This document shows, piece after piece, positions 7,487 through 36,938 of a stretch of 64,000 nt of DNA; position 1 is the stretch's first letter, and each line of letters starts with the position of its first letter. The stretch lies in NCBI RefSeq assembly GCF_001027545.1, contig NZ_CP009498.1:124001-188000 (forward strand), in the 5' to 3' direction. Below the pieces are notes generated by a model. It saw only the letters and a program-made list of their open reading frames with translations. It was not told where the DNA came from and did no database searches. Position numbers and translations under genes: made by a program. Source of the DNA: Endomicrobium proavitum. Lineage in GTDB: Bacteria > Elusimicrobiota > Endomicrobiia > Endomicrobiales > Endomicrobiaceae.

Positions 7487-7513
7487 TTGTCATTGTTTGT
7501 CAAAAAATATGAT
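7487..7513 (+). promoter_or_regulatory. Possible promoter upstream of the (GACA)17 tract
   Basis: TTGTCA (7487-7492) and TATGAT (7508-7513), each 5 of 6, but with a short 15-base spacer. If used, the transcript would run through the GACA tract and into the terminator at 7710-7748. Confidence 0.35.
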
Positions 7514-7587
7514 AACATCTTTTGTTAGATTACCATTTTTTACTACAAACACAACTGAGAAAATCAGGACGTCTTTCGCTTTCAAAA

Positions 7588-7657
<70 letters not shown>

Positions 7658-7709
7658 CCACTACCTGCAATAAACAGATACAGGTTACAAACAATATATT
7701 ATTTTTCTT

Positions 7710-7748
7710 AATCACATCTCTTTTTAATTTAGAGATGTGATTTTTTTT
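7710..7748 (+). terminator. Rho-independent terminator between the GACA tract and the OmpA-like gene
   Basis: 12-base stem (7710-7721 with 7731-7742), 9-base loop, then T6. It stands 21 bases before the OmpA-like gene, so a transcript from upstream would either stop here or read through into the adhesin locus. Confidence 0.88.
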
Positions 7749-7769: not shown

Positions 7770-8276
7770 ATGAAAAAAATCATTACGCGGTTAAACGGTT
7801 TTATTTTTGCGTTGGCGTTAATTTGCGCATTATTAACTGTTGTTTGCAAACTTTCGTTTGCGGGCATAGCAGAGAAAGCGCAGGAAAGTAAGCTTCAGTC
7901 TGTAAAGATTGCGCAGTTGTCGTCGGGCAAGCCTCATATTAAACCATTTAACGCCGGACTTATGCATTTTGATACCCGCAAATATAACATATCGCCGCAA
8001 ACGCAGGCAGAGTTAAAAATTCTTGTTAAAGAAATAAATCAGTTTGAGTATGATGAAATTATAGTTGAAGGTCATACGGATTTTGAAGGAAGCGGTTCCG
8101 GTAATATTGAGCTTTCTAAAAACCGCGCAAAAGCCGTTTACGGTGAGCTTTTGAAACTTGGCGTTCCGCCGGCAAAAATAAAATATTACGGTTCGTCGTC
8201 ATATAAACCTAAAGCGGAAAATTATACAACTCAAGGAAAAGCCGCAAACCGCAGAGTTGAGATATTTGTAAAATAA
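7770..8276 (+). CDS. Exported OmpA-domain protein (peptidoglycan-binding)
   Basis: 168 residues. The N-terminus is a signal peptide or anchor (hydrophobic residues about 9-30, then an alanine-rich turn). The rest is one OmpA C-terminal-type domain (about 60-168): the core motif VEGHTDFEGS, the NRAKAV helix and the AANRRVEIFV terminus are clear. Such domains bind diaminopimelate peptidoglycan in the periplasm. It closely resembles the OmpA domain fused to the end of the 1866-residue autotransporter two genes downstream, so the two probably share an origin. RBS GAGGG lies 7 bases before the ATG. Its exact role (linking the wall to the outer membrane, or supporting the adhesin) is inferred. Confidence 0.85.
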   Translation: MKKIITRLNGFIFALALICALLTVVCKLSFAGIAEKAQESKLQSVKIAQLSSGKPHIKPFNAGLMHFDTRKYNISPQTQAELKILVKEINQFEYDEIIVEGHTDFEGSGSGNIELSKNRAKAVYGELLKLGVPPAKIKYYGSSSYKPKAENYTTQGKAANRRVEIFVK

Positions 8277-8311: not shown

Positions 8312-9670
8312 ATGCCAGAACAAGAAAAAAACACGTCGCAAAATATAAATCAGGAAAAAACGGCGCAAGACGCGCCCAAACATATGGGCGTAGCAGGGCA
8401 AAACGTATTTTTTGCGCCGCCGCAAATAGTTACGGCGTCAGCCGTACCGCAAGGGGCGGACGCGCCAAATGTTGCGCTGAAAGATCCGTTTTTTGCGCCG
8501 CCGCCGGCAGTTCCAACGCAAGAAGGACCGCTTGGAATAAAGTTTGACTTTAACGACGGCTGCCGAGTACTTTTACCCAAAGGGCAGTGGCACGTGCAAA
8601 TAGAAGACGCCGAATCGGGCAATATAATTTTCATATGCGATGTTGACGAAGGGTGGGTTGTAAGCACAAAAAAATATTATATTCCGTTTGTAATAAAAGT
8701 ATGGAAACGAGGCGAGCCCAACCCTGTGTTTATGCACGAATTAAATTTAACGGGCAAAGAAGTTGTATTAAAGTTTCCGGTGGGCACAGTGGGCGATACG
8801 GTCGGCTGGCTGCCATACGCGGAAAAGTTTTACTTAAAACACAAATGCGCAACAGAACTTACAATGGGCAAAGATATGGTAGATATATTTGCGGCGCAGT
8901 ATCCCAACATACAGTTTAGCGCAATGCCCGGAAAAGTCCGTTACGAAAAACCGTATGCCACATATAAAATGGGATTGTTTTTCAGAGGGGATAAAAATAA
9001 CCAGCCGATAGATTTCAGACAAGTGGGTTTGCACAGAACGGCAGGATATATATTGGGAGTAGATCCAACGGAAGAGCCGCCGAAAGTGAATTTGAGTTAC
9101 GAAAGAAAAATAAAAGAGCCGTATGTTGTAATAGCCACAAAAGCGTCAAGCTTGCCGAAAATGTGGAACAACGGGCACGGGTGGGACATAGTCTGCAAGT
9201 ATTTGAAGTTTTTAGGATACAGGGTTTTAGCAATAGACAGGGAGTATATTTTCGGACAGAACTTCACATATCAGCAAGTTCCAAGGGACGCGGAAGATTT
9301 TACGGGCAACAAGCCGCTTGCGGAAAGAATAGAGTTATTGCAGCACGCGGATTTTTTTGTTGGATTGTCGTCGGGTTTAAGCTGGCTGGCGTGGGCAAGC
9401 AAAATTCCGGTAGTAATGATAAGCGGTTTTACGCTGCCGATATGCGAGTGGAATAACCCGTACAGAGTATTTAACAGCCACGGCTGCAACGGTTGCTGGG
9501 ACGACGTGAATGAGAATTTTGATCACAAAGATTTTTTCTGGTGCCCCAAACACAAAGGAACAGACAGACAATTTGAGTGCACGCGCTTAATAACAGGAAA
9601 ACAAGTAGTAGGGCATATAGACAGATTGATGAAAGATAAAAACATAGCAGCGCCAAAAGACAGAAAGTAA
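8312..9670 (+). CDS. Autotransporter O-heptosyltransferase (BAHT/TibC-type)
   Basis: 452 residues, cytoplasmic, no signal peptide. The first ~65 residues are a Pro/Ala/Gln-rich linker with a repeated FFAPP motif. An N-terminal beta domain (about 72-145) follows, then a GT-B glycosyltransferase part with GLFFRGDK, PYVVIATKASSLPKMWN and FFVGLSSGLSWLAWA. Four cysteines C392, C395, C411 and C423 follow the pattern C-x2-C-x15-C-x11-C, resembling the Fe(III)-binding cysteines of TibC. Enzymes of this group transfer heptose from ADP-heptose to serines on AIDA-type passenger repeats. The gene sits directly upstream of an AIDA-repeat autotransporter, the expected substrate. Sugar donor identity is inference. 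RBS CGGAGAG precedes the ATG. Confidence 0.86.
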   Translation: MPEQEKNTSQNINQEKTAQDAPKHMGVAGQNVFFAPPQIVTASAVPQGADAPNVALKDPFFAPPPAVPTQEGPLGIKFDFNDGCRVLLPKGQWHVQIEDAESGNIIFICDVDEGWVVSTKKYYIPFVIKVWKRGEPNPVFMHELNLTGKEVVLKFPVGTVGDTVGWLPYAEKFYLKHKCATELTMGKDMVDIFAAQYPNIQFSAMPGKVRYEKPYATYKMGLFFRGDKNNQPIDFRQVGLHRTAGYILGVDPTEEPPKVNLSYERKIKEPYVVIATKASSLPKMWNNGHGWDIVCKYLKFLGYRVLAIDREYIFGQNFTYQQVPRDAEDFTGNKPLAERIELLQHADFFVGLSSGLSWLAWASKIPVVMISGFTLPICEWNNPYRVFNSHGCNGCWDDVNENFDHKDFFWCPKHKGTDRQFECTRLITGKQVVGHIDRLMKDKNIAAPKDRK

Positions 9671-10023
9671 AGGCAACCCCTAACCCCTTGCGGGAGAGGG
9701 ACTTGCAAAGCAAGAGGGAAGTTAATTCCCCTTTTATAAAAAAGGGGTGTCAGGCAAAGCCTGACGGGGTATTTGCCGTTTAGGCTGTTGCCTCTGGTTG
9801 CGAAAAAGAAGGGAAGCACAGAAAGCGAATTGTTTCAAGATTTGTCGTTGCAGTAAAAATTTGAAAATAAAAAGCAGCCTCTGAAACAAGGGGCATTGCC
9901 CCAAGTTCAGGGTGGCAATAATTAATATAAAAATAAATGGCATGCGGTTATAGTTTGTTTGCAACAGTAACATAAAAAAATATAAGTTGAATTCATAGCG
10001 CCACGTGCGCAAGGAGCAACACA
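9671..10023. repeat. Intergenic region with nested palindromes before the AIDA autotransporter
   Basis: No gene. Bases 9702-9714 (CTTGC-AAA-GCAAG), 9728-9747 (CCCCTTTT/AAAAGGGG) and 9749-9765 (GTCAGGC-AAA-GCCTGAC) form three consecutive hairpins typical of a mobile intergenic repeat. A further nested hairpin (CTGAA 9881-9885 with TTCAG 9906-9910, inner GGGGC/GCCCC) lies in the likely leader of the autotransporter mRNA. No promoter is convincing. Confidence 0.6.
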
Positions 10024-13000
10024 ATGAGTATAAAAAAAGAGAAATTATTTGGGACTAAACAGCCTCAAGAATTTTCGCCTTTAGAAAACTATCCGGTATC
10101 ATCGTCCGCCTATTTGGCGTCCGACGAATATGTATCTTCGTCGTTTAGCTCGGCGTGCAGAGGACCGGTTATTACCAGATTTTTTAACGGCGGCAAAAAG
10201 ATTGTGCAAACCGTAGCTCTTACGGCAATGCTCGCCCAAAATTTTGCCCCTTACGCCCACGGCGCTTTCACTTCAAATGTAAATAGCGGCGATGTTGTAT
10301 CAGGAGAAGCAGTATTAAGCGGTACCCAAAACGTTTATAACGGCGGAGTAACGGTTGATATTTTAATTAAAAATTACGGCAATCAGTATGTTTACTCCGG
10401 TGGAATCGCTTCTAACACATATGTGGGCAGCACCGGAACTCAATACGTTTCCGGCGGCACGACGCTTAACATAATAGCATTGAACTATGCTCTGTTATAT
10501 TTACAGTCCGGCGGATACGCTTCGGGCGTAAGTTTTAAGAATGGCGGCGCTATGTATATCTCGTCGGCAAGCGCTGACAACACTTCTTTTGTAAGCGGCG
10601 TGCAGTATGTTTCTTCCGGAGGTGTAGCAAGCAACAACACGTTTGACGTTTACGGTTCTCAAGGCGTTGACGGCGGCAGCGCATATAATAATAGTTTTTA
10701 TAACTCTTATATCAATCAAAGCGTATATTCCGGTATTGCTTCGGGAAATTATTTTTTCTATTCAAGAGAGAACGGCGGACAAGGGCAAACTGTGCAATAC
10801 GCTTCTGTGCTCAATAATTCTTTTTACGGGCAATACGCTTCGCAGTCTATCTATTCCAGCGGTTATGCTTCAGGCAACTATTATACAAATTTTGGATATC
10901 AACAAGTTTCCAACTATGCAAGCGCGTTAGATACTTATTTCGGCGCTTCTGCAACCCAAACTCTTTACTCTTCCGCATACGCTTCTAAAACTGTTTTCAA
11001 CGCGGGAGGGTATCAAAATGTGTCCGCATATGCTTCGGCGGTTGACAATGTTTTGCAAGGCGGTATGTATTCAAGCGCTTACTATCAAAGTTATGTAAGC
11101 GCGTATCAAAGCGTATATTCCGGCGGGCAAGTTTACAGCACGGTTCTTAATGCCGGCGCGTATAGTTATCTTGCAAGCTTTGCGTTTGCGCAGTCAACTA
11201 CAATAAACGCAAGCGCAAGCCAGTATGTGGCAAGTTATGCGTCTTCTTTCGATACAATTATTAGCGGACAAAGCGCCGGCCAAACTTTGGCAAACTATGC
11301 TGTGGCGTCTAATACTTTAATTAATGATTTAGCCTTGCAAGTTGTCAGTTCCGCCGCAAGCGCCTATTCAACTACAATAAACAGCGGAGGAATGCTTGCT
11401 GTCTTGTCTGGCGCAAGAGCTTATAATGTAAACCAATCCTCAGGAGGTTTAATAAGCACAATAGTTGACAGATACGGATATGGCACTTATATTTCAGGAA
11501 GTAACGCTTCCGGAGTTTTTTGGCTTTCGGGAAGTTCGACGTATAATTTTGATCTTTACGGAGGCGTATATACTTCGGTATCCTCCGGTTCCGTATATTC
11601 ATATATAAAACAAGGGCAGCTTACCGTATTATCCGGCGGTACGGCTAACAGCACTACAGTTAATAATTTTGGAGGGTTGTATGTTTACTCGTCAGGGTCG
11701 GCTATAAATACCGTGCAAAATTCCGGCGGGAATATTTATGTAAGCGTTCAGGCAGGACTGGCGGATTATGTTTCCGGAGTGAATGCTTCCGGACAAGCTT
11801 TCTGGCTTTCAGGCGGCACGGCAAGCAACTTTATACTTTATTCCGGCGGAAGTCAGTATGTGGGGCGTTACGGTTCTACCGTAAACGCAACGATAAACAG
11901 CGGCGGACTTTTATATGTGGCTCCTGACGGTTCGGCAATAGGCGTAACGCAATCTTCCGGCGGGGATTTAATTTTTACATTGAGCAACAATAATTCAAAT
12001 TATATTTCAGGAACAAATCAAGACGGCGCAACAATGTATTTGTCGGGAAGTTCGGCGTCAGGTTTTATATTTAACTCCGGCGGCTTTGCAGCCGTGAACA
12101 CGGGCGGAACGATTACCGATACAACAGTAAATTCCGGCGGCAGGCTTGATGTTTCCGGCGGCACTTCTCTTGTTACGGCATCTAATATAATTCAAAGTTC
12201 CGGCGGTAATATTAATGTAAACATTGTGTCTAACAACGGATATAATTCTCTGTTTGTTTCCGGCTCAAATGACAACGGAACGTTTTACGCTTCCGACGGT
12301 TATGCGTCCGGTTTTGTATTGTATAGCGGCGGCTTTTTAGGAGTTTCTTCCGGCGGTATTATGGAGAACACAATACTTAGCGGCGGCTCTATTGCTCTTT
12401 CCGGCGGTTCGCTTTTAAATGTAAGCCAGTTAGCCGGCAATATCAGCGTTTATTTCTCAAGCGGCGACAGTTCAACTTATATTTCCGGAGTAAATCAGTA
12501 TGGCAATTTATTGTATTACTCCGGCGGCACGGGCAGCGGTTTTACGTTTAACTCGGGTATTTGGATGTACGCATCGGGTAGCGGAGTTTCTCTTTATGAC
12601 GTTACCGTTAACTCTTCGGCATATTTCAGCGCCTATTCGGGCGCGTCGGTTGTAGGCATTAAAGTTAACTCCGGCGGAAATTTTATGGTTTCTGAAGTTG
12701 TCGGTTATGACAGCTCTACATATGTTTCCGGCGAAAATCAGTTTGGCAGCAAACTGTATTATGCAAGCGGAGTAGGCAGCGGGTTTGTGCTTAGCGCAGG
12801 TAACAGTTTATATGTTTCTTCCGGCGGGAAAATTTATGATACTTTAATTGAAGGCAAATATGACAGCGATTACGGATATATTTCATCAGCATATGTTTCA
12901 ATGTATAGCGGCAGCGCAATAAATACGGTAATTAACGCCTATGCCTCAATGGGATTTTACAGCGCATATTTATCTAATACAATAGTTAATTCCGGCGGAG

Positions 13001-15624
13001 TAATTTCCGGCGGAACCGCTAATTTGTATAACACAAAAATTAACGGCGGATACGTTTCAGTGGGTTCCGCAAATATGAAAAACACCGAAGTTAACGGCGG
13101 ATGGTTTTATGTTAGCAGCGGAAATTATTACGATACTGTTCTTAACGGAAGTTCTTTGTTAAGCTATTATTCCGCAAATGTAATAGACTTGCAGGTAAAT
13201 TCCGGAGCGCTTGTCATAGGCGGGTCGGGAAATGTTGTAAACGCTCAGATAAATTCCGGCGGTTCTGTTGAGGCTAGCGCCGGAACCTACACCGGAACTA
13301 AAATTGCATACGGCGGATACCAATATTTAAACTATGCAATTGTTGATTTTTCGGGAACGGTTAACGGAATTCAGCTTTTAAATTCTGCCACAATAGGAAT
13401 AAGTACAACGGTTAACTCCGGCGGTTCTCAAATTTTAAATTACTCCGCCAGCGCAATAGACGTTACTCTTAACGGCGGATATCAGTATGTAGGCGGTGGG
13501 GCTACAGCGGCAAATGCTACAGTCAATTCCGGCGGCGTGCAATATGTAGAAGTAGAAGGCACAGCAATGCGTACAACCGTAAATGCCGGAGGAGTTCAAT
13601 CGGTTAATATATTTGCGACTGCGGAAGATACCACTGTTAACGCAGGCGGACGCATGCAAATTAAAAAAGGCAGTTTTATAACTGAAAAAACTAAAATTAA
13701 CGCCGGCGGAACTCTTGACGGATATTCTTTTGACATAGAAGACGTAACTCTTAACGGCGGAAAATGGATTAACGCCGGACAAGCTACCGTTAGAGATTTA
13801 ACCATAAACGGCGGCGTGTTGGATATGCGTAAACAATCTTTCGCGCCGGAATTTACAAATTTCAAAGTTGCCAATTTGTCTGCAAATAACGGCATAATAG
13901 ACATGAGCGTTACTCTCAATTCCGACGGGTCTCCGGCGGATTTGCTTATTATTGACGATTCGTTTGCCGGCAAGGCTTTGATAAGAGTCCATAATACCGG
14001 CGGCGCAGGCGACGAAACTTTTGCCGACGGAATACAGCTTGTTGACGGCGGAGCAATATTAGCCGGCGACGGAACTTTCGGGCTTGTCGGCGGAAAATAC
14101 GATGTCGGCGGATGGGAATATAAACTTTACAGAGGCGGGCTTGACGGAATTTCTAACCCTAACGCTTGGTTCCTTCGTTCCGGAGTTATGCCAAATTACA
14201 CGGATATGTTTAGAACGATTGCCAACGTGCCTATTATAAACGTTGTGCTTGCAAAAACAGGAATGAACTCGCTTGAAAAACGTTTGGGAGATTTGCGCGC
14301 GGCAAATAACGGCGACAATACTCAAGGCGTATGGGTAAGAACGTACGGCAAACAAGCGCAGGTTAACGATTTAATAAAAACAGATTTAACGCTCTTTGGC
14401 GCGGAAGCGGGCTATGATTATCTTATATCTTCCGACGGGTTTAACAAATTATATTTAGGAGTTATGGCAGGCTACATGCTTGCCGACAGTATTAAAACAA
14501 AACAGGCAACCGGCTCTTACAGCAAGGGAAACGGAGAATCTCCAAGCGCCGGAGCTTATTTGTCTTACGTAGCCGGCAACGGCTGGTTTGTTGACGCAAC
14601 GGCAAGAAATTTCTGGACAAAGCTGGATATGACAAATATCGCTTCAGACGGCACGGAGCTTATGTTTAAACCGGAAAGAAATATTTTTGCCGCAAGCGTT
14701 GAAGTAGGCAAAACGTTTACTTCCAAACTGTCCGACAATTCTTACTTAAGAATAGAGCCTAAAGCCGAACTTCAGTATTATAAAGCAAACGGCAATCAAA
14801 CAGACGTTTCAAACGGCGTAGGCAGCATAGTTTACGACGATGCGGATTACTTCAACGGAAAACTTGCGCTACTTTTAGGGCTTACAAAAATTAAAACAAA
14901 CGGACTTATTTTTGAACCGTATGTTGAAGTTGCTTATAACAACGAATTTGCCGGCAAGGGCGATATCAGTTACGGCGGCGCGGACTATAAGTCTGACTTG
15001 TCCGGCGGAAACTTTGAAGGTTCTTTGGGTTTAAACGTAAATCTTGCAAAAGGAACTTACATTTACGCGCAAGCAACTTATGAAAACGGACAAAAGGTAG
15101 ATGCTATAGGCGCAAATTTGGGCATACGTTACGGCTTCGGCTCAACTGCTGCGGCAGAAAAACAACAGCCGGCAAAAAAAATTCAGACTGATGTTAATAA
15201 TGTTAACGCGGCAGCCGTTGGCGTAGAAGAATCCGGAACCGAAAAAATAACGGCTGTTCAAAAAACCGTAAACTCTCAAGGCAAAACCTATTCAAGAGAT
15301 TTCTATTTTGCCACTATAAACTTTGATCACGGCAAGTCCGACATCAATCATAAATCTGCGGACATTGTCAGATCTGCCGCTGAGAAAATAAGACAGTTGC
15401 AGTATAATTACGTTGTAATTGAAGGTCATACCGATTCAACCGGCGATTTTAAACATAAGCAGGAACTTTCAAGAACGCGCGCAAAAGCCGTTCGCGATAT
15501 GTTAATAGGCGCGGGAATTCCGGTAGGTAAAATAGTAACTATCGGCTACGGCGACAGCCAGTTGAAAAACGTTGATTCTCAAGGCGAAGCGCAAAACAGA
15601 AAAGTTGATATTACAATAAGATAG
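10024..15624 (+). CDS. Giant AIDA-repeat autotransporter with C-terminal OmpA domain
   Basis: 1866 residues; start ATG behind AAGGAG. An extended signal region (hydrophobic stretch about 60-82, ending near YAHG) leads into a passenger of about 1200 residues made of strand-loop-strand repeats with recurring NSGG, SSGG and VNSGG turns, as in AIDA-I, TibA and Ag43-type adhesins. An autotransporter barrel follows (about 1430-1705, from GVWVRTYGK to LGIRYGFG). Unlike usual autotransporters, the barrel is not the end: about 50 linker residues and an OmpA-type peptidoglycan-binding domain (about 1755-1866, with VIEGHTDSTGD and AQNRKVDITIR) follow. The upstream heptosyltransferase probably glycosylates the passenger. 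Likely role: surface adhesin anchored to the wall from the periplasmic side. Terminator follows. Confidence 0.9.
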   Translation: MSIKKEKLFGTKQPQEFSPLENYPVSSSAYLASDEYVSSSFSSACRGPVITRFFNGGKKIVQTVALTAMLAQNFAPYAHGAFTSNVNSGDVVSGEAVLSGTQNVYNGGVTVDILIKNYGNQYVYSGGIASNTYVGSTGTQYVSGGTTLNIIALNYALLYLQSGGYASGVSFKNGGAMYISSASADNTSFVSGVQYVSSGGVASNNTFDVYGSQGVDGGSAYNNSFYNSYINQSVYSGIASGNYFFYSRENGGQGQTVQYASVLNNSFYGQYASQSIYSSGYASGNYYTNFGYQQVSNYASALDTYFGASATQTLYSSAYASKTVFNAGGYQNVSAYASAVDNVLQGGMYSSAYYQSYVSAYQSVYSGGQVYSTVLNAGAYSYLASFAFAQSTTINASASQYVASYASSFDTIISGQSAGQTLANYAVASNTLINDLALQVVSSAASAYSTTINSGGMLAVLSGARAYNVNQSSGGLISTIVDRYGYGTYISGSNASGVFWLSGSSTYNFDLYGGVYTSVSSGSVYSYIKQGQLTVLSGGTANSTTVNNFGGLYVYSSGSAINTVQNSGGNIYVSVQAGLADYVSGVNASGQAFWLSGGTASNFILYSGGSQYVGRYGSTVNATINSGGLLYVAPDGSAIGVTQSSGGDLIFTLSNNNSNYISGTNQDGATMYLSGSSASGFIFNSGGFAAVNTGGTITDTTVNSGGRLDVSGGTSLVTASNIIQSSGGNINVNIVSNNGYNSLFVSGSNDNGTFYASDGYASGFVLYSGGFLGVSSGGIMENTILSGGSIALSGGSLLNVSQLAGNISVYFSSGDSSTYISGVNQYGNLLYYSGGTGSGFTFNSGIWMYASGSGVSLYDVTVNSSAYFSAYSGASVVGIKVNSGGNFMVSEVVGYDSSTYVSGENQFGSKLYYASGVGSGFVLSAGNSLYVSSGGKIYDTLIEGKYDSDYGYISSAYVSMYSGSAINTVINAYASMGFYSAYLSNTIVNSGGVISGGTANLYNTKINGGYVSVGSANMKNTEVNGGWFYVSSGNYYDTVLNGSSLLSYYSANVIDLQVNSGALVIGGSGNVVNAQINSGGSVEASAGTYTGTKIAYGGYQYLNYAIVDFSGTVNGIQLLNSATIGISTTVNSGGSQILNYSASAIDVTLNGGYQYVGGGATAANATVNSGGVQYVEVEGTAMRTTVNAGGVQSVNIFATAEDTTVNAGGRMQIKKGSFITEKTKINAGGTLDGYSFDIEDVTLNGGKWINAGQATVRDLTINGGVLDMRKQSFAPEFTNFKVANLSANNGIIDMSVTLNSDGSPADLLIIDDSFAGKALIRVHNTGGAGDETFADGIQLVDGGAILAGDGTFGLVGGKYDVGGWEYKLYRGGLDGISNPNAWFLRSGVMPNYTDMFRTIANVPIINVVLAKTGMNSLEKRLGDLRAANNGDNTQGVWVRTYGKQAQVNDLIKTDLTLFGAEAGYDYLISSDGFNKLYLGVMAGYMLADSIKTKQATGSYSKGNGESPSAGAYLSYVAGNGWFVDATARNFWTKLDMTNIASDGTELMFKPERNIFAASVEVGKTFTSKLSDNSYLRIEPKAELQYYKANGNQTDVSNGVGSIVYDDADYFNGKLALLLGLTKIKTNGLIFEPYVEVAYNNEFAGKGDISYGGADYKSDLSGGNFEGSLGLNVNLAKGTYIYAQATYENGQKVDAIGANLGIRYGFGSTAAAEKQQPAKKIQTDVNNVNAAAVGVEESGTEKITAVQKTVNSQGKTYSRDFYFATINFDHGKSDINHKSADIVRSAAEKIRQLQYNYVVIEGHTDSTGDFKHKQELSRTRAKAVRDMLIGAGIPVGKIVTIGYGDSQLKNVDSQGEAQNRKVDITIR

Positions 15625-15650
15625 CGGCAAGACGTTTCAAAGGTAGTAAA

Positions 15651-15687
15651 AAGCGGCGCGTGGCAATTGCTACGCGCCGCTTTTTTT
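15651..15687 (+). terminator. Rho-independent terminator after the AIDA autotransporter
   Basis: 11-base GC-rich stem (15651-15661 with 15672-15682), self-complementary inner loop, seven Ts. The loop and T-tail overlap the likely alaS promoter. Confidence 0.92.
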
Positions 15688-29989: not shown

Positions 29990-30030
29990 TTTCTTACCCT
30001 CCTACCATCTTAACTTCCTACCCTCTATTT
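29990..30030 (-). repeat. Purine-rich degenerate intergenic repeat
   Basis: On the minus strand it reads GAGGGTAGGAAGTTAAGATG and continues GTAGGAGGGTAAGAAACAAC. Related strings occur on the plus strand at about 36095-36140 and 50255-50300. The rest of 29886-30035 shows no gene. Confidence 0.5.
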
Positions 30031-30035
30031 TCTTC

Positions 30036-30064
30036 TTGTTTTTTTCAAACAGTTAGGTTATAAT
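30036..30064 (+). promoter_or_regulatory. Likely promoter of the Pmp-like locus
   Basis: TTGTTT (30036-30041), 17-base spacer, TATAAT (30059-30064). The transcript would start near 30071 and carry the (GACA)9 tract in its leader. Confidence 0.6.
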
Positions 30065-30105
30065 AAAGAACAAAATTTTATTACATTTAAAAAAAGAGAA
30101 AAAAT

Positions 30106-30165
<60 letters not shown>

Positions 30166-30307
30166 ATACTTCGTTGGTGTTGTTATCCGAAAAAAACATC
30201 CTTGCTGTCAATTCCAATAAAATAGAATGCGCTGAATGCCAAACGGCAGTCAGTGTTTTTTCATTTATAAAACAAAAAGTAAAAATACAATTTGAAAGAG
30301 GAAAAAA

Positions 30308-32647
30308 ATGAAAACAATTTTACGAGCAGTCATTGCATTTTTTGTATGCGTCCGTCATACCGTGCTTGGCACGGTATCCATGTTAAATAAAAAACGGATT
30401 CCGATTTTCAACGGAAGCAGGAAAGCCGTTACTTTCTCCTTACTCCTTGCTACTTTTTCCTTGTTTTTGGCAGCGCCAAAAGCCTACGCCCAAACGTCTG
30501 TAAACAACTTTGACAATTTTATAGCCATAACAACCGTAACAAACAATTACAACATATCTTTAACCGGCAATATCTTATTTTCCACCGGCGGCTTTAGCGT
30601 ATTAACCGGCACAATTACCGGAAACGGATATGCGTTAGACGGGCAAAATGCAAACGCCGGAATTACTCTTTCTTCCGGAAACAGTTTATTTTTTTATGGA
30701 CCCATAACATTTCAAAATTTTAAAAAAGTAATAAGTAGTAGTGGAAGCGCAGCGCAGGGAGGAGCATTATTTGCAGCAGGGGCATATAATACCTATTCAA
30801 ACAGCACAACCATGTTAGATTTTACAAATGCAACAGTAAACTTTACAGGCAATACGGTAACAACTGTAAGCGATTATATCTATGGAAGCGCAGCGCAAGG
30901 CGGAGGACTATTTGTAGGCGGAGCGGTCTCTGCAGGGGCATATGGTGGAATAGCCAATTCCAGTAGCGGCACAGCAGTAGTAAACTTTACATCATCAATA
31001 ATAAATTTTACAAGCAATACGTTAATGAGTGGAGCTATCGGAAGCGTAGCGCAAGGCGGAGGGCTATTTGTAGGAGGAGCAGTCTCTGCCGGAGCATTTA
31101 CCGGTGGAACCAATAACTCCAGCAGCGGCACAGCGGTAGTAAACTTTACATCGTCAACAATAAATTTTACAAGCAATATGTCAACTTACACGATTGGAAC
31201 GGTGAGAACAGTAGGGCAAGGCGGAGGATTATTTGTGGGCGGAGCGGTCTCTGCCGGAACAAGGGATACCGGAGTAAACAATTCCGGTAGCGGCATAGCG
31301 GTAGTAAATTTTATATCATCAACAATAAATTTCACAAGCAATACAGTAACGGGTAAAAATGCAGCGCAAGGCGGAGGACTATTTGTAGGCGGAGCCTCTG
31401 CCAGTGGAGAAAATAACAATTCCAGCAGCGGCACAGCGATAGTAAATTTTATATTGTCAATAATAAACTTTACAAGCAATACAGTAAATGGGGCAAATGC
31501 AGTGCAAGGAGGAGGCTTATTTGTGGGAGGCGCGGTGTCTGCCGGCGCGGCATATCAGTATAATATTGGTGTAAACAATGCCAGCAGCGGCACAGCGGCA
31601 GTAAACTTTACATCATCAATAATAAACTTTACAGACAATATAATGAGTGGTCAATCCGCCTCGCAAGGAGGAGGGCTATTTGTAGGCGGAGCCTCTGACA
31701 GTGGAGGACATGACAATTCCGGCAGCAGCGGCGGCACAGCAGTAGTAAACTTTACATCTTCAACAATAAACTTTACAGGCAATACAGCATATGCTAGAAG
31801 TGCGCAAGGAGGAGGATTATTTGTAGGCGGAGCAGTCTCTGCCGGAGTATGGTACGATGATGCAAATTCCAACAGCGGCACAGCGGTAGTAAACTTTACA
31901 TCATCAACAATAAACTTTACAGGCAATACGGTAAAGGGTGCAACTATGGGAAGCGCCGCGCAAGGCGGAGGGCTATTTGTAGGAGGAGCGGTCTCTGCCG
32001 GAGCATATGGTGGAATAGTCAATTCCAGCGGCGGCACAGCAGTAGTAAACTTTACATCGTCAACAATAAACTTTACAAACAATAAAGTAACTTTCAATAT
32101 TGGAGAGGGGGGAACAGCAGGGCAAGGAGGAGGATTATTTGTAGGCGGAGCGGTCTCTGTCGCAGCATTTGCTAGCGGAATAAACAATTCCAGCAGCGGC
32201 ACAGCGGTAGTAAACTTTACATCATCAACAATAAACTTTACAGGCAATACAGTAGCGAGTGGATACAGAGCAACCGTAGTACAAGGAGGCGGACTATTTG
32301 TAGGCGGAGCGGTCTCTGCCGGAATATGGGCGGCAAACTCAAACACCAGCAGCGGCACAGCGATAGTAAACTTTACATCGTCAATAATAAACTTTACAGG
32401 TAATGCGATAAATATGGGATACACTGGAAGCGCCGCGCAAGGCGGAGGGCTATTTGTAGGTGGAGCGGTATCTGCCGGAGTAGGTAGGACTGTAATAAAC
32501 AATTCCAGTAGCGGCACAGCGGTAGTAAATTTTACATCATCAATAATAGACTTTACAGGTAATATGGTACAGGGTGGACGCACTGGAAGCGCCTCGCAAG
32601 GAGGAGGGCTATTTGTAGGGGGGGGCAGTTTCTGCCGCAATATCTGA
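30308..32647 (+). CDS. Pmp-like repeat autotransporter, 5' part (passenger), ends at a G8 frameshift
   Basis: 779 residues in the present frame. A long signal region (62 residues, ending AAPKAYAQ) includes a stretch encoded by a palindromic repeat. The passenger consists of repeats of about 45-60 residues with the core QGGGLFVGGAVSAG, then a variable loop, then GTAVVNFTSS-INFT-NTV. The paired G-G-G-L/I and F-x-x-N motifs resemble chlamydial polymorphic membrane proteins. The frame fails at a run of eight Gs (32618-32625), after which 7 unrelated residues and TGA follow. With seven Gs the frame continues into the next entry, giving one protein of about 1922 residues (30308-36077). As read, this product lacks the barrel and could not be displayed as an autotransporter. 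RBS AGAGG before the ATG. Confidence 0.85.
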   Translation: MKTILRAVIAFFVCVRHTVLGTVSMLNKKRIPIFNGSRKAVTFSLLLATFSLFLAAPKAYAQTSVNNFDNFIAITTVTNNYNISLTGNILFSTGGFSVLTGTITGNGYALDGQNANAGITLSSGNSLFFYGPITFQNFKKVISSSGSAAQGGALFAAGAYNTYSNSTTMLDFTNATVNFTGNTVTTVSDYIYGSAAQGGGLFVGGAVSAGAYGGIANSSSGTAVVNFTSSIINFTSNTLMSGAIGSVAQGGGLFVGGAVSAGAFTGGTNNSSSGTAVVNFTSSTINFTSNMSTYTIGTVRTVGQGGGLFVGGAVSAGTRDTGVNNSGSGIAVVNFISSTINFTSNTVTGKNAAQGGGLFVGGASASGENNNSSSGTAIVNFILSIINFTSNTVNGANAVQGGGLFVGGAVSAGAAYQYNIGVNNASSGTAAVNFTSSIINFTDNIMSGQSASQGGGLFVGGASDSGGHDNSGSSGGTAVVNFTSSTINFTGNTAYARSAQGGGLFVGGAVSAGVWYDDANSNSGTAVVNFTSSTINFTGNTVKGATMGSAAQGGGLFVGGAVSAGAYGGIVNSSGGTAVVNFTSSTINFTNNKVTFNIGEGGTAGQGGGLFVGGAVSVAAFASGINNSSSGTAVVNFTSSTINFTGNTVASGYRATVVQGGGLFVGGAVSAGIWAANSNTSSGTAIVNFTSSIINFTGNAINMGYTGSAAQGGGLFVGGAVSAGVGRTVINNSSSGTAVVNFTSSIIDFTGNMVQGGRTGSASQGGGLFVGGGSFCRNI
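30357..30377 (+). repeat. Palindrome inside the Pmp-like signal-peptide coding region
   Basis: ATACCGTGC-TTG-GCACGGTAT, a perfect 9-base stem, followed by CCATG as in the other palindromic elements (GGATCCATG at 1195-1203). It is translated in frame within the residues VRHTVLGTVSM. Confidence 0.75.
32618..32625 (+). repeat. G8 homopolymer: frame switch of the Pmp-like gene
   Basis: Every other repeat copy has GTAGGCGGAGC here. This copy has GTA followed by eight Gs and CAG. Deleting one G restores V-G-G-A-V-S-A and an open frame to 36077. Either a slippage-prone phase switch or a sequencing error. Confidence 0.9.
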
Positions 32648-32738
32648 TGAGGGAGCAAACAATGCCGGCAACGGTATAGCGGTAGTAGATTTCACATCGT
32701 CAATAATAAACTTTGCAAGTAATACAGTAGAAAATAGA

Positions 32739-35700
32739 ATGAATGGAACCGCAGCACAAGGCGGCGGGCTATTTGTAGGTGGAGCGGTATCTGCCGGAGC
32801 ATATGAAGAATATACCGATGATACAGCAAACAATTCCAGCAGCGGCACAGCGGCAGTAAACATTACGTCATCAGCAATAAACTATATAGGCAATACGGTA
32901 ACGAGCGGAGGCACTGGAAGCGCATCGCAAGGCGGAGGACTATTTGTAGGCGGAGCGGTCTCTGCCGGAGTAGCTGGTTCCGGAGCAATCAATTCCAGCA
33001 GCAGCGGCACAGCGGTAGTAAATTTTATATCATCAACAATAAATTTCACAAGCAATACGGTAACGAGCGGAGGCAATGGAAGCGCCTCGCAAGGAGGAGG
33101 GCTATTTGTAGGCGGAGCAATATCTGTCGGAGCATATGATTCCGGAGCAAACAATTCCAGCAGTGACACAGCGATAGCAAACTTTATATCATCAACAATA
33201 AATTTTACAAGCAATACGGTAACGAGCGAATATATAGGAAACGCCGCGCAAGGCGGAGGGTTATTTGTAGGCGGAGCGGTTTCCGCCGGATTATATAGTA
33301 ACGGAGCAACCAATTCCAGCAGCAGCGGCACGACCGTAGTAAACTTTATGTTGTCAGCAATAAACTATATAGGCAATACGGTAACAAGTAGAAACGGGGG
33401 AACCGCCGCGCAAGGAGGAGGGCTATTTGTAGGCGGAGCGGTATCTGCCGGAATACGTAATGGTGGGGACAATATTTCCCGCAACGGAACAGCAGTGGTA
33501 AACTTTACATCATCAACAATAAATTTTACAAGCAATGTGTTAGCAAGAGGAATTAACGGAACAGCCGCGCAAGGCGGAGGATTGTTTGTAGGCGGAGCGG
33601 TATCTGCCGGAGCATATAATGTTGGAATTAATGATTCCGACAGCGGCACAGCAATAGTAACTTTCACAAATTCAAAAGTTAATATAAATAATAACACAGC
33701 GGAAGAAGGCGGAGGAATATTTGCAGGCGGTTCAGTGTCTGCAGGGTCATCAGGAATAGGGACCAATGCTATAAATCTCGCCTTTTTCGGCGTTGCGGAA
33801 ATAAATTTTAAAGGTTCAACGGTAACAATAAACGGCAACACAGCAACAACCGGCGCAGGAATATATGTAGCCGGAAATTATATGGACTTCTTCAGCGGCA
33901 ACATGGCTGCGGGAGGACAAGCAAAAATAATATTTGAAGATTCGCAAGTGGCGCTTAATTATAACACAGCAAGTTCAACCGGCGCAGCAGTATATGCCGA
34001 CGACGCAATAGTAACCCTCAAGAACACAGTAATGACATTTATGAATAATAAATCGTTAATAGGCGCAAGCATATATGCAAGCAATAATTCAAGCATAACA
34101 TTGTCCGGAAAAGGAAACTTCACAGGAAACCAAGCAACAACAGCGGGAGGGGCAATCTACGTAACCGGAGGCAGCACAGTAACAGTGGAAGCCGCAAGCG
34201 GCAATATATTATTTACAGGCAACAAAGCAGGCAGCGCGCCAAACGATATATATCTTGATAACAATAGCTTGTTGAATTTAATAACGGCAGGAACAAACAC
34301 AATAAGTTTAGTCGGCGGAATACAAAGCGCAATCAGCGCAACAAATATAGCGGTTAACAAAACAGGAGCCGGCGATTTATACATAGGCGGCAACAACCAA
34401 ATTAACGGCGACTTCACAGCAACAGCAGGAAAAGTAGCGCTGTTAGAAAACGCAACGCTTGAGGCAAACAACCTGATATTTAGAGGCGCAAAATTTGACA
34501 TGACCGACAGCAACACGCATGTAAACGTAGCAACAGCAACAACGTTGTTTGAAAGCGATACAAACTTATTGATGGATATATTTGCAAACGGAGAAAACGA
34601 CCAAATATATGCAAGCTCGGCGCAAGTAGGAGGGAATTTGCATATAAAAGCGCGTTTTGGCTTTTACAATAACAGAGAATATAAACTAATAATGTCCGGC
34701 AACAACGTAGTATTTGGAACGTTTACAACAACAACGTTTGATTACGTAGGAACAAGCAGCTTTTCGTATGAAATAAAATATAACGATATAACAGACTGGA
34801 CAGGAATAGTAAGAATAATAGTAAGCGGAACAAGCGCCGCAAATTTCCAAGAGCTGCCGAATTTAACATATAACCAAAAAGAAACAGCAAGAACGTGGGA
34901 CGCGTTGTCGCTGGCGCCGGAAATAGGAAATGATTTGATGAATGTAATGTCGGAAACAGCGGGCTTGGCAGAGAAAGAGCAGAAAGAAGTTCTGTCGGCA
35001 GTATCAGGATATTTTGTAAGCAACGTAATAAGAAGCGCAGCGTTAGACAGCGAGAATATTGAGCTGTATGAGAGAATAAAGAAAGAGAATGGAGTAGAAG
35101 AAACAACCACAGCAATGTGGGTGCAGGCAATAGGGGCAAGCGCAAAGTTTGGAAAAGATATAAACAGCATAGGTGAATATAAAGACAGCGGATACGGAGT
35201 AGCGGCAGGTTTTGACGTGTATTTTGGACCAACAAGCGGATTAAATAAAACAACGTTGGGAGCATATGTAAAGTATAAAGGCAACAGTATAAAAGAAGAA
35301 GCAAATAAAGCAACGCTAAATAAAATAGGCGGAGGAATATACGGCGGCTACGCGTCGGAGAAGTATGAAATAAAAGCGACGATAAACGCAAGCAAAGACA
35401 GCTATGAAACAACAAGAAATATAGAGCTAAGCAAATATTTCCCCGGGTATGAAGATAGAGAAGCAAAAGGAAGTTACGCAGGAATGACAATAGGCGGCGA
35501 CGTGGAAGGAGCGCTAAAAATAAAAATAGCAAACAATACAATCTTCAAACCATATATAGGAGCAGAAGTAAAAAACGCAAGTTATGAAAGCTTTAAAGAA
35601 ACAGGAGCAAACGGACTAAACTTAAATGTGGAAGCAGGAAATTATTTCAGAAGCGCAGGACGAGTAGGAGCGGGAGTAAACTACGAGAATGAGAAATGGG

Positions 35701-36077
35701 CAGGATATGTAAACTTGGAAGGAAAATATTTGCTTGCAGGAAACAAATACGAAATAGAAAGCGCATTTGAAGGAACAGAAATAAAATTCCAAAGCCGAGG
35801 ATATGAAGAGAGCGGCGTGATATTGGGAGTAGCAATAGGAGGAAGCGTAAAAGTAGCGGAAGGGTTGAAAATAATAGCAGGAGCAAACGCATACACAGCG
35901 GATAATTACACAACCATTAACGGCAACGCCGGATTAAGATATAACTTTGGCGCAGCAACAAACAAGATAACAAGCAAAGAAGAAGCCCAGGCAACCCCTG
36001 AACCGACAGCCGCCGCCGAAACGCAATTATACGAGATGAACGATTTGCCTGACGAGTTACAAAATGCTTTAAGATGA
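32739..36077 (+). CDS. Pmp-like repeat autotransporter, 3' part (passenger end and beta-barrel)
   Basis: 1112 residues from the first ATG after the frameshift; the frame is open back to the G8 tract. Six more QGGGLFVGG repeats are followed by shorter Pmp-like units (GGAIYVTGG, FTGNKA), a parallel-helix end region (about nt 34300-34850), and an autotransporter barrel from TTTAMWVQAIGASAKFG (nt about 35100) to GLRYNFGA (nt about 35940). After the barrel an extra ~45-residue tail rich in Glu, Thr and Ala ends at ALR. No signal peptide or convincing ribosome site precedes ATG 32739, so this half is probably expressed only when the frame is joined to the 5' part. Codons here favour A in third position, unlike neighbours. 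Confidence 0.83.
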   Translation: MNGTAAQGGGLFVGGAVSAGAYEEYTDDTANNSSSGTAAVNITSSAINYIGNTVTSGGTGSASQGGGLFVGGAVSAGVAGSGAINSSSSGTAVVNFISSTINFTSNTVTSGGNGSASQGGGLFVGGAISVGAYDSGANNSSSDTAIANFISSTINFTSNTVTSEYIGNAAQGGGLFVGGAVSAGLYSNGATNSSSSGTTVVNFMLSAINYIGNTVTSRNGGTAAQGGGLFVGGAVSAGIRNGGDNISRNGTAVVNFTSSTINFTSNVLARGINGTAAQGGGLFVGGAVSAGAYNVGINDSDSGTAIVTFTNSKVNINNNTAEEGGGIFAGGSVSAGSSGIGTNAINLAFFGVAEINFKGSTVTINGNTATTGAGIYVAGNYMDFFSGNMAAGGQAKIIFEDSQVALNYNTASSTGAAVYADDAIVTLKNTVMTFMNNKSLIGASIYASNNSSITLSGKGNFTGNQATTAGGAIYVTGGSTVTVEAASGNILFTGNKAGSAPNDIYLDNNSLLNLITAGTNTISLVGGIQSAISATNIAVNKTGAGDLYIGGNNQINGDFTATAGKVALLENATLEANNLIFRGAKFDMTDSNTHVNVATATTLFESDTNLLMDIFANGENDQIYASSAQVGGNLHIKARFGFYNNREYKLIMSGNNVVFGTFTTTTFDYVGTSSFSYEIKYNDITDWTGIVRIIVSGTSAANFQELPNLTYNQKETARTWDALSLAPEIGNDLMNVMSETAGLAEKEQKEVLSAVSGYFVSNVIRSAALDSENIELYERIKKENGVEETTTAMWVQAIGASAKFGKDINSIGEYKDSGYGVAAGFDVYFGPTSGLNKTTLGAYVKYKGNSIKEEANKATLNKIGGGIYGGYASEKYEIKATINASKDSYETTRNIELSKYFPGYEDREAKGSYAGMTIGGDVEGALKIKIANNTIFKPYIGAEVKNASYESFKETGANGLNLNVEAGNYFRSAGRVGAGVNYENEKWAGYVNLEGKYLLAGNKYEIESAFEGTEIKFQSRGYEESGVILGVAIGGSVKVAEGLKIIAGANAYTADNYTTINGNAGLRYNFGAATNKITSKEEAQATPEPTAAAETQLYEMNDLPDELQNALR

Positions 36078-36164
36078 TGACAGGAAGCGATGATGGTAAG
36101 AAGTTAAGAAGATAAGAGGGTAAGTAACGACAAGAAACAACAATTACAAATTAGAAACAAAAAG

Positions 36165-36206
36165 AAACGGCAGATTTCCGGCTTAACCGAAAATCTGCCG
36201 TTTGCT
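36165..36206 (+). terminator. Hairpin terminator after the Pmp-like gene
   Basis: 13-base stem (36165-36177 with 36191-36203) with an extra inner CGG/CCG pair. The T-tail is weak (TTTGCTGTT), so termination efficiency is uncertain. The purine-rich repeat at 36095-36140 lies just upstream. Confidence 0.65.
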
Positions 36207-36249
36207 GTTGTAGTTAATTACACTTTTCACTTTGCAGTTAAACGCTTTC

Positions 36250-36278
36250 TTGCCATTGCCGTGCTAAAATAGTAAAAT
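36250..36278 (+). promoter_or_regulatory. Likely leaderless promoter of the CpXC gene
   Basis: TTGCCA (36250-36255), 17-base spacer, TAAAAT (36273-36278), each 5 of 6. The ATG follows after 6 bases and there is no Shine-Dalgarno. Confidence 0.65.
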
Positions 36279-36284
36279 TCTATT

Positions 36285-36938
36285 ATGTCTATTTCAAATA
36301 AAGAAGAAATAAAATGCTCTTGCGGACATGTTTTTGAAGCGGAGCTTGTTTCTGCGATAAGCGTTTTCGATAATCCGGAGCTTAAAGAAGCTTTGATTGC
36401 CGGAGAAATAAATCTTGTAACATGTCCTGCCTGCAAGGAAATGTTTTACGCGGAAAATTTTATTTTGTATCACGACAGCGAAAACGAACTTATAGCCTTT
36501 GTATATCCGCTTTCTTTTCAGAATCAGGCGGCGCAATGCAGAAAAAAAATGCTTGCGGACTTTGCGCAGGCTGTTGAAAGTTTTAGCGAAAAACAAAAAA
36601 TAAATTACGACCCGCTTCTTATTTTCGGCGTTGAAGATTTAACTCTGTTGTTAAAGAGCGAACATGAAGCCGAAGACGAGGAGATGGTTTTAACTTATAC
36701 GGCTCCCGAGATTTCTCTTGATATATTTAAAATATCTCCGCATGCCGCAAGAAAGTTTTCAATGCCTAAAGTTTTGCCGGTGTTAAAAGGCGATAAAAAT
36801 CCGAATTTAAAATCAGTCCTTGCCGCTTTGCAAGTACTTCTTAAACACAATTCCAATCTTCTCCACTATCACGCTCTTCTTGAAAAGCTGTCAAAAAATA
36901 AAACGCTTTTTGAAGAAATTAAGAAAAAGGCAAAATAA
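36285..36938 (+). CDS. CpXC domain protein
   Basis: 217 residues, soluble. The N-terminal zinc-ribbon-like domain has two Cys pairs, CSCG (about 10-13) and CPAC (about 47-50), followed by MFYAENFILYHD, the pattern of the CpXC family, whose function is unknown. The remainder is alpha/beta with an acidic patch (EAEDEEMVL). It is followed after 2 bases by a small membrane protein. Translation is probably leaderless. Confidence 0.8.
   Translation: MSISNKEEIKCSCGHVFEAELVSAISVFDNPELKEALIAGEINLVTCPACKEMFYAENFILYHDSENELIAFVYPLSFQNQAAQCRKKMLADFAQAVESFSEKQKINYDPLLIFGVEDLTLLLKSEHEAEDEEMVLTYTAPEISLDIFKISPHAARKFSMPKVLPVLKGDKNPNLKSVLAALQVLLKHNSNLLHYHALLEKLSKNKTLFEEIKKKAK

What the first reader, a model, noticed from the sequence alone, without database searches (positions are those of the whole stretch)
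8312..15624. Heptosyltransferase-adhesin pair far from the Proteobacteria where it is known
Seen: a GT-B enzyme with the TibC-like four-Cys pattern (C392, C395, C411, C423; last spacing 12 instead of the 16 I recall for TibC) immediately before an AIDA-repeat autotransporter. Known: BAHT enzymes hyper-heptosylate AIDA-I/TibA-type passengers. Inference: protein O-heptosylation in this lineage.
Basis: partly seen in the sequence, partly recalled or inferred. Interest (0 to 1): 0.68.

Follow-up and report, generated by a model that had tools for sequence, protein, structure and literature searches.

The report
Switchable sugar-coated adhesin cassette in Endomicrobium
A termite-gut bacterium carries a complete, ordinary-looking kit for coating a giant surface adhesin with heptose sugar, and its copies of this kit and several other surface genes sit behind short DNA repeats that look like random on/off switches.

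Summary
The pair is real. ORF 8312-9670 is a TibC/AAH-type autotransporter heptosyltransferase (BAHT; TIGR04414 554 bits, cut-off 200). ORF 10024-15624 is an AIDA-type autotransporter with matching repeats.

Its refuter does not apply: all five ADP-heptose enzymes have homologues, three slightly below curated cut-offs. S353 matches the AAH residue that accepts both heptose donors. BAHTs occur in seven phyla; the Elusimicrobiota enzymes group together, so this is no recent transfer. As an enzyme-substrate pair it is a new member of a known kind.

Beyond the finding: (1) a second cassette has a near-identical BAHT and a diverged passenger; (2) the barrel is followed by an OmpA-type peptidoglycan-binding tail; (3) both cassettes lie behind AGAC tetranucleotide arrays. 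The genome has nine such arrays, all before envelope-protein genes and followed by terminator-like hairpins, resembling the leader-peptide attenuator of Streptococcus gallolyticus pili. That switch is convincing for cassette 2, less clear for the window's own array. Neither heptosylation nor switching was measured.

The parts
7509..7673 (+). possible leader ORF (54 aa) that reads through the AGAC array; start codon uncertain
   Evidence: the ATG at 7509 overlaps the only good -10 candidate TATGAT, so this leader is less sure than that of cassette 2
7588..7655 (+). (AGAC)17 tetranucleotide array
7710..7742 (+). terminator-like hairpin (12 pairs, no mismatch) followed by a T run, between the array and the first gene
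   Evidence: fold z-score -7.2, 0 of 200 shuffles as stable
7770..8276 (+). OmpA-like peptidoglycan-binding envelope protein, 168 aa, first gene of the probable operon
   Evidence: PF00691 58.4 bits
8312..9670 (+). BAHT (TibC/AAH-type autotransporter heptosyltransferase), 452 aa; D162, S279, K283, R339, S353, W358, C392/C395/C411/C423
10024..15624 (+). AIDA-type autotransporter, 1866 aa, predicted BAHT substrate
10279..13785 (+). passenger of strand-loop-strand repeats, 16.2% Ser, no Cys, 29 SGG motifs (shuffled mean 4.4, max 11)
13786..14127 (+). autochaperone domain AC_1
   Evidence: PF18883 62.5 bits
13852..15138 (+). autotransporter barrel domain (TIGR01414 full length)
   Evidence: model; Foldseek to BrkA beta domain 3qq2
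15322..15600 (+). OmpA-type periplasmic peptidoglycan-binding tail after the barrel
   Evidence: PF00691 64.4 bits; separate domain in model; OprF C-terminal domain 5u1h
15650..15683 (+). terminator-like hairpin and T run after the autotransporter gene
   Evidence: read by eye in the sequence
30106..30165 (+). leader ORF (19 aa) with (AGAC)10 at 30115-30154, second member of the switch family in this window
30229..30256 (+). terminator-like hairpin between that leader and the PMP-type autotransporter at 30308

Best explanation
The locus makes a heptosylated self-associating-type adhesin. The BAHT protein takes ADP-heptose from the cell's LPS-precursor pathway and adds heptose to many serines of the strand-loop-strand repeats of the neighbouring autotransporter in the cytoplasm. 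The passenger is then exported through its own barrel. A separate OmpA-type domain behind the barrel probably ties the outer-membrane anchor to peptidoglycan. Family membership and presence of the pathway are shown by sequence; donor use, transfer to serine, export and anchoring are inferred from TibC/AAH and OmpA homologues. Cassette expression is probably switched by changes in AGAC copy number in a leader ahead of an attenuator: likely for cassette 2, possible for the window's own copy.
For: Equivalog-level match to TIGR04414 and TibC. Conserved catalytic base and donor residues: D110/D162, K230/K283, R286/R339, W305/W358; all four iron-finger Cys. P300 of TibC is S353 here, as Ser-294 in AAH, the residue that lets AAH use both ADP-D,D- and ADP-L,D-heptose (PMC4358343 section 12). 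HldD (390 bits, cut-off 275) and HldA (397, cut-off 345) adjacent; GmhA (194) and HldC (180) adjacent; GmhB-like (168). 24 of 24 BAHT-positive Elusimicrobiota genomes have a TIGR02199 match, 17 of 24 over the cut-off. 14 of 19 relatives' BAHT genes are followed directly by an autotransporter-like ORF and 3 are preceded by one. The two BAHT copies differ at 4/1/21 sites by codon position, so selection keeps the protein. The barrel and OmpA tail are separate domains in the model.
Against: GmhA, HldC and GmhB homologues score just under their curated cut-offs, so these names rest on best match and gene pairing. T226 of TibC is Ser here and V266 of the thumb is Thr. 2 of 19 relatives' BAHT genes have no autotransporter in the fetched stretch, one at a contig end. 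G103 is BAHT-positive with only a weak partial HldC match (E 1.8e-4). The window's own leader has no clear start, and a promoter-like TATAAT follows its hairpin.
Confidence: 0.82

Rival explanations
1. The enzyme is a TibC-fold transferase that has moved to another ADP-sugar or another acceptor, so the passenger carries some other glycan.
For: S279 replaces Thr-226, a phosphate contact. Three donor-pathway enzymes are under curated cut-offs. The genome also has several GT9 LPS-heptosyltransferase-like genes under their cut-offs, so ADP-heptose may serve LPS alone.
Against: Equivalog score almost three times the cut-off; the other donor residues are kept; the passenger holds the same repeat family (TIGR04415), and all 22 genome matches of that family lie in the two BAHT partners.
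Confidence: 0.08
2. The AGAC arrays are not switches but neutral repeats carried along by duplication and recombination among surface genes; the hairpins just end upstream transcripts.
For: Several elements share copied flanks, e.g. AT30308 with its duplicate at 643 kb. The array is absent upstream of BAHT in 19 of 19 other Elusimicrobiota loci looked at. G089 has 11 matches to the array-end pattern; of these 11, 0 have a hairpin of score 14 or more and 1 has an in-frame ATG ahead of the array. No copy-number variation could be observed.
Against: 8 of 9 arrays have a hairpin of score 14 or more at the right distance, against 0.7% of 1500 random positions and 5.5% of positions upstream of ORFs. 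All 9 have one early and two late stops, expected 1.97 with shuffled spacers. 8 of 9 have an ATG leader through the array and the ninth a GTG. The layout recurs in another genus of the family and others.
Confidence: 0.35
3. The cassette is a recent transfer from gut Proteobacteria.
For: Patchy presence: 24 of 340 phylum genomes over the cut-off, 3 of 76 in its own family. Relatives occur in other rumen and termite-gut bacteria.
Against: All 19 named Elusimicrobiota rows stand on one side of a 100/100 branch, away from 49 Pseudomonadota rows. A decayed copy lies in a small-genome relative (G271), as expected from loss.
Confidence: 0.05

Closest known systems
TibC-TibA (ETEC) and AAH-AIDA-I (DAEC): BAHT family with strand-loop-strand autotransporter
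   Same: Same N-terminal domain, GT-B core, catalytic base, iron-finger cysteines with identical spacing, repeat-type passenger, gene order enzyme then adhesin (PMC4358343)
   Different: N-terminal extension of about 50 residues; AAH-type Ser at the stereoselectivity site; autotransporter has an OmpA tail after the barrel; two near-identical enzymes with different passengers; AGAC arrays upstream
Streptococcus gallolyticus pil1/pil3 phase-variable attenuator (Danne et al. 2014, PMC3894217)
   Same: Short repeats inside a leader ORF, stem-loop terminator behind it; one repeat phase stops the leader well before the hairpin, the other two stop next to or inside it
   Different: AGAC units instead of GCAGA; nine loci in one genome instead of two; outer-membrane and autotransporter genes instead of pili; a different phylum; no functional proof here
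Peptidoglycan-binding OmpA-like domains (OprF C-terminal domain, Pal, YfiB)
   Same: Sequence and fold match of the adhesin tail
   Different: Here fused behind a type Va autotransporter barrel

Membership tests
BAHT (TIGR04414, TibC/AAH) | Equivalog model over curated cut-off | tested here: met
   554.4 bits against 200
BAHT (TIGR04414, TibC/AAH) | N-terminal TibC beta-barrel domain and GT9-type catalytic domain | tested here: met
   PF21129 122.7 bits, PF01075 29.2 bits
BAHT (TIGR04414, TibC/AAH) | Catalytic base Asp-110 and donor residues Lys-230, Arg-286, Trp-305 | tested here: met
   D162, K283, R339, W358; all invariant in 11 Elusimicrobiota rows
BAHT (TIGR04414, TibC/AAH) | Donor residue Thr-226 | tested here: not met
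   Ser279 instead, conservative; Ser is invariant in the 11 Elusimicrobiota rows. Not treated as excluding: PMC4358343 lists Ala mutants of Asp-110, Arg-286, Trp-305 and Lys-230 as inactive, and these and the model cut-off are met
BAHT (TIGR04414, TibC/AAH) | Four iron-finger cysteines with TibC spacing | tested here: met
   C392/C395/C411/C423 corresponds to C339/C342/C358/C370
BAHT (TIGR04414, TibC/AAH) | Neighbouring autotransporter with heptosylation-type repeats | tested here: met
   TIGR04415 in 13 stretches
BAHT (TIGR04414, TibC/AAH) | Heptose transfer to serine; dodecamer | not testable with these tools
   needs biochemistry
AIDA-type self-associating autotransporter | AIDA repeats, autochaperone, type Va barrel | tested here: met
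   PF16168, PF18883, TIGR01414; barrel in model
AIDA-type self-associating autotransporter | Barrel forms the C-terminus of the protein (recalled as typical, not from a call) | tested here: not met
   about 160 further residues with an OmpA domain; 7 of 15 BAHT-linked autotransporters scanned carry OmpA. I therefore call it AIDA-type, with a variant C-terminus
ADP-heptose pathway | GmhA, HldA, GmhB, HldC, HldD present | tested here: met
   homologues of all five; HldA and HldD over cut-offs; GmhA 194/209, HldC 179.7/181.5, GmhB 168/178 just under
S. gallolyticus-type repeat attenuator | Repeat array inside a translated leader ORF | tested here: inconclusive
   promoter and ATG for cassette 2 and several others; start uncertain for the window's own array; translation itself not testable
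S. gallolyticus-type repeat attenuator | Intrinsic terminator between leader and gene | tested here: met
   8 of 9 at score 14 or more
S. gallolyticus-type repeat attenuator | One phase stops early, others stop at or in the hairpin | tested here: met
   9 of 9
S. gallolyticus-type repeat attenuator | Repeat number varies in the population and sets expression | not testable with these tools
   only one assembly held; needs reads or reporters

The most novel reading that the evidence does not exclude
E. proavitum runs a genome-wide set of AGAC-repeat attenuators, nine in one 1.6-Mb genome, that stochastically switch its outer-membrane surface, including two heptosylated, peptidoglycan-tethered adhesins. 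In the sequenced clone 8 of 9 leaders are in the early-stop (predicted off) phase and only the 3281-residue PMP-type autotransporter is in a predicted on phase, which would fit near-exclusive display of one large adhesin at a time. In the papers searched the only repeat attenuators found are those of streptococcal pili.
Probability: 0.45. Interest if true: 0.75.

Novelty: new variant of a known kind. Interest (0 to 1): 0.52.

Why it matters
It puts protein O-heptosylation, described in the paper read only for proteobacterial pathogens, into cultivable gut Elusimicrobiota as a long-standing trait, so it is not a pathogen speciality. It offers a simple natural experiment: two near-identical enzymes facing two very different passengers. 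If the AGAC leaders switch as predicted, a small host-associated bacterium from a little-studied phylum uses repeat slippage plus transcription attenuation across its surface proteins, a mechanism found in my searches only for Streptococcus gallolyticus pili, and one whose state can be read off from repeat number alone. The decayed enzyme gene in a small-genome relative hints that the trait goes when genomes shrink.

Tried and rejected
Rejected: altered iron finger (spacing equals TibC). Rejected: missing ADP-heptose pathway. Rejected: recent proteobacterial transfer. Rejected: AGAC control as a general BAHT feature; 0 of 19 other Elusimicrobiota BAHT loci have any 4-9 nt repeat of 4 or more copies within 1.2 kb upstream. 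Considered: AGAC array as promoter-spacing switch; in seven of nine a good -10 lies before the leader start, so spacing would not change; for the duplicate at 643 kb no clear -10 was found, and for the window array the -10 candidate overlaps the leader ATG.

Statistical cautions: the nine arrays are not nine independent cases. Three share one downstream flank and two another, so P = 5e-7 for the stop pattern is too small; about six flanks are independent. The 28-nt limit comes from PMC3894217; the 22-nt limit and the hairpin score were chosen after seeing the data. '8 of 9 early' (P 0.001; 7 of 8 without the window, P 0.0026) assumes random phases and correct repeat counts in a long-read assembly. 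The early phase of the 1408-kb array uses its GTG start and was worked out by hand.

Literature: searches for Elusimicrobium minutum + autotransporter, Endomicrobium + autotransporter, and heptosylation + autotransporter + Planctomycet returned 0 papers; Elusimicrobi + phase variation returned 4, listing only seen, none on this by title; repeat attenuators returned only PMC3894217; OmpA-tailed autotransporters returned 3, listing only seen. The library lacks most subscription papers, so absence is weak. Read: PMC4505116 whole; PMC4358343 outline, abstract, passages and sections 6, 11, 12; PMC3894217 abstract, passages and section 16; PMC11257099 passages only; others listing only.

Full report
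WHAT IS THERE. The window lies in a single-contig genome of 1,588,979 bases, the same length as the published chromosome of Endomicrobium proavitum Rsa215 (PMC4505116, read whole), a free-living termite-gut Elusimicrobiota isolate. The assignment rests on that exact length and on close kin in the tree; no tool named the organism.

THE ENZYME. ORF 8312-9670 scores 554.4 bits against TIGR04414, NCBI's equivalog model for the autotransporter strand-loop-strand O-heptosyltransferase (cut-off 200), and 554 bits against solved TibC. Mapping TibC residues named in PMC4358343 gives D162, S279, K283, R339, W358 and C392/C395/C411/C423. One informative change is P300 to S353. In AAH the corresponding Ser-294 accepts both heptose epimers, while Pro-300 makes TibC selective. 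The genome has HldD, so both donors should be present; I predict AAH-like donor use.

THE DONOR. HldD and HldA are neighbours in a KDO/LPS gene cluster (L010). GmhA and HldC are neighbours elsewhere (L011). A GmhB-like phosphatase lies at 291 kb. HldD and HldA exceed curated cut-offs; GmhA (194 of 209), HldC (179.7 of 181.5) and GmhB (168 of 178) fall just short. Of 24 Elusimicrobiota genomes with a BAHT over the cut-off, 24 have a TIGR02199 match and 17 exceed its cut-off; G103 has only a weak one.

THE SUBSTRATE. ORF 10024-15624 has AIDA and TIGR04415 repeats, an autochaperone and a barrel. All 22 TIGR04415 matches in the genome lie in this protein and in the partner of the second BAHT. The passenger is 16.2% serine, has no cysteine and holds 29 SGG and 10 NSGG motifs against shuffled means of 4.4 and 0.4; one of the two TibA sites located in PMC4358343, Ser-313, sits in NSGG. 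Behind the barrel is a flexible linker and a separate OmpA domain: AlphaFold2 on 5 aligned sequences, mean pLDDT 76.4, pTM 0.62, linker under 50. Foldseek finds autotransporter barrels (BrkA 3qq2) and OmpA-type domains (OprF 5u1h). OmpA is found in 7 of 15 BAHT-linked autotransporters scanned, AIDA in 14 of 15. A peptidoglycan tether is therefore likely, but is inferred from homology.

A SECOND CASSETTE. At 853-861 kb a BAHT with 6 of 452 differences precedes a 1876-aa autotransporter. DNA identity is 97% across the enzyme and 96% into the adhesin's signal region, then the passengers part. The 26 nucleotide differences in the enzyme fall 4/1/21 by codon position. The enzyme is thus kept constant while the passengers diversify.

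KINSHIP. TIGR04414 exceeds its cut-off in 24 of 340 phylum genomes, in three families. Of 19 relatives' BAHT loci fetched, 14 are followed by an autotransporter-like ORF, 3 preceded by one (one weakly), and 2 have none in the stretch. A scan of named genomes kept 80 of 216 loci across several phyla, many from rumen or termite gut. In an 85-row tree the 19 named Elusimicrobiota rows form one side of a 100/100 branch against the other named groups; the window joins E. labiotermitis. G120's enzyme (phylum f16) lies outside that group on a long branch. A decayed remnant with three of four finger cysteines lost lies in G271, a 0.9-Mb member of the family.

THE SWITCH. An (AGAC)17 array lies at 7588-7655 and (AGAC)10 at 30115-30154. 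Genome-wide there are nine array places; their copy numbers account for all 148 20-mer hits. Each lies upstream, on the same strand, of an envelope-protein gene: the two BAHT cassettes, PMP-type or other autotransporters at 154, 368, 478 and 643 kb, and small outer-membrane barrels at 520, 1360 and 1408 kb. The 643-kb gene was recognised as a duplicate of the 154-kb one and was not itself scanned. Eight arrays sit in an ATG leader ORF and the ninth in a GTG one. A terminator-like hairpin starts at +41 to +80: score 14 or more in 8 of 9, against 0.7% of 1500 random positions and 5.5% of positions upstream of ORFs. In all nine one repeat phase ends the leader early, well before the hairpin, and the other two end it close to, inside or beyond the hairpin; spacer shuffles give 1.97 expected. 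At cassette 2 the stops are +17, +78 and +82 with the hairpin at +61 to +98. This is the layout shown to work in S. gallolyticus pil1, where 22 GCAGA repeats end the leader 39-49 bases before the terminator and out-of-frame variants run into it.

STATE AND SPREAD OF THE SWITCH. In the assembly 8 of 9 leaders are in the early phase and the 368-kb giant is in a late one. (AGAC)6 occurs in 8 of 76 family genomes and 0 of the 3 other genus members. The array-leader-hairpin layout with one early and two late stops is seen in G317, G318 and G300; G303 and G085 have a hairpin but two early phases; G312 and G316 have suitable stops, but no convincing hairpin was scored there by my scan. In G248 and G301 the arrays read lay at contig ends or without this layout. 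BAHT genes elsewhere in the phylum lack such arrays (0 of 19), so the switch and the glycosylation kit are separate traits joined in E. proavitum.

LIMITS FOR THE WINDOW COPY. The ATG at 7509 overlaps the only -10 candidate, and a promoter-like TATAAT follows the hairpin. I put about 0.45 on a functional leader here and about 0.6 for cassette 2; these are judgements, not computed values.

VERDICT. As an enzyme-substrate pair this is a confident new member of the BAHT family in a phylum where my searches found it undescribed. The OmpA tail and the repeat attenuators make the whole a new variant. The boldest part, a nine-locus switch regulon, is sequence-based and directly testable.

Noticed in passing
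L012:4220-9850 (-), residues 1623-1741: The second cassette's autotransporter carries an ART-PolyVal (ADP-ribosyltransferase-like) domain, PF18760 44.8 bits over its 31.2 cut-off, between the barrel and the OmpA tail, i.e. on the predicted periplasmic side.
   Followed up: no
window 30308-32647 and 32739-36077; L109: The autotransporter behind the (AGAC)10 leader is split into two ORFs, and its duplicate at 643 kb is split with the same protein ends, so the break predates the copy.
   Followed up: partly
window 29991-36300 against L109: The autotransporter locus at 154 kb is duplicated at 643 kb with 96.7% identity over 4.4 kb; the first ORF is shorter in the duplicate (422 against 779 aa) in a region of 159-base internal repeats.
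   Followed up: partly
L219, L227, L230-L238 (G089): One Elusimicrobiaceae genome has 11 matches to the array-end pattern AGACAGACAGATACTCT[TC]; most share an upstream TTTAT flank, none has a strong terminator-like hairpin, and by eye several precede housekeeping genes: probably a different element.
   Followed up: partly
L217 (G085): A short AGAC/AGAT leader with a strong hairpin precedes a type IV pilin-like gene in another family, perhaps a related attenuator.
   Followed up: no
L010:7-3018 (+): An autotransporter with a long Lys/Ala-rich tail after the barrel instead of an OmpA domain.
   Followed up: no
L074:8455-8656 (G271): Decayed BAHT remnant in two frames with three of four iron-finger cysteines lost, in a small genome of the same family.
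   Followed up: partly
L012:2844-3662 (-): A Mutator-type transposase lies just downstream of the second cassette, a possible vehicle of the duplication.
   Followed up: no
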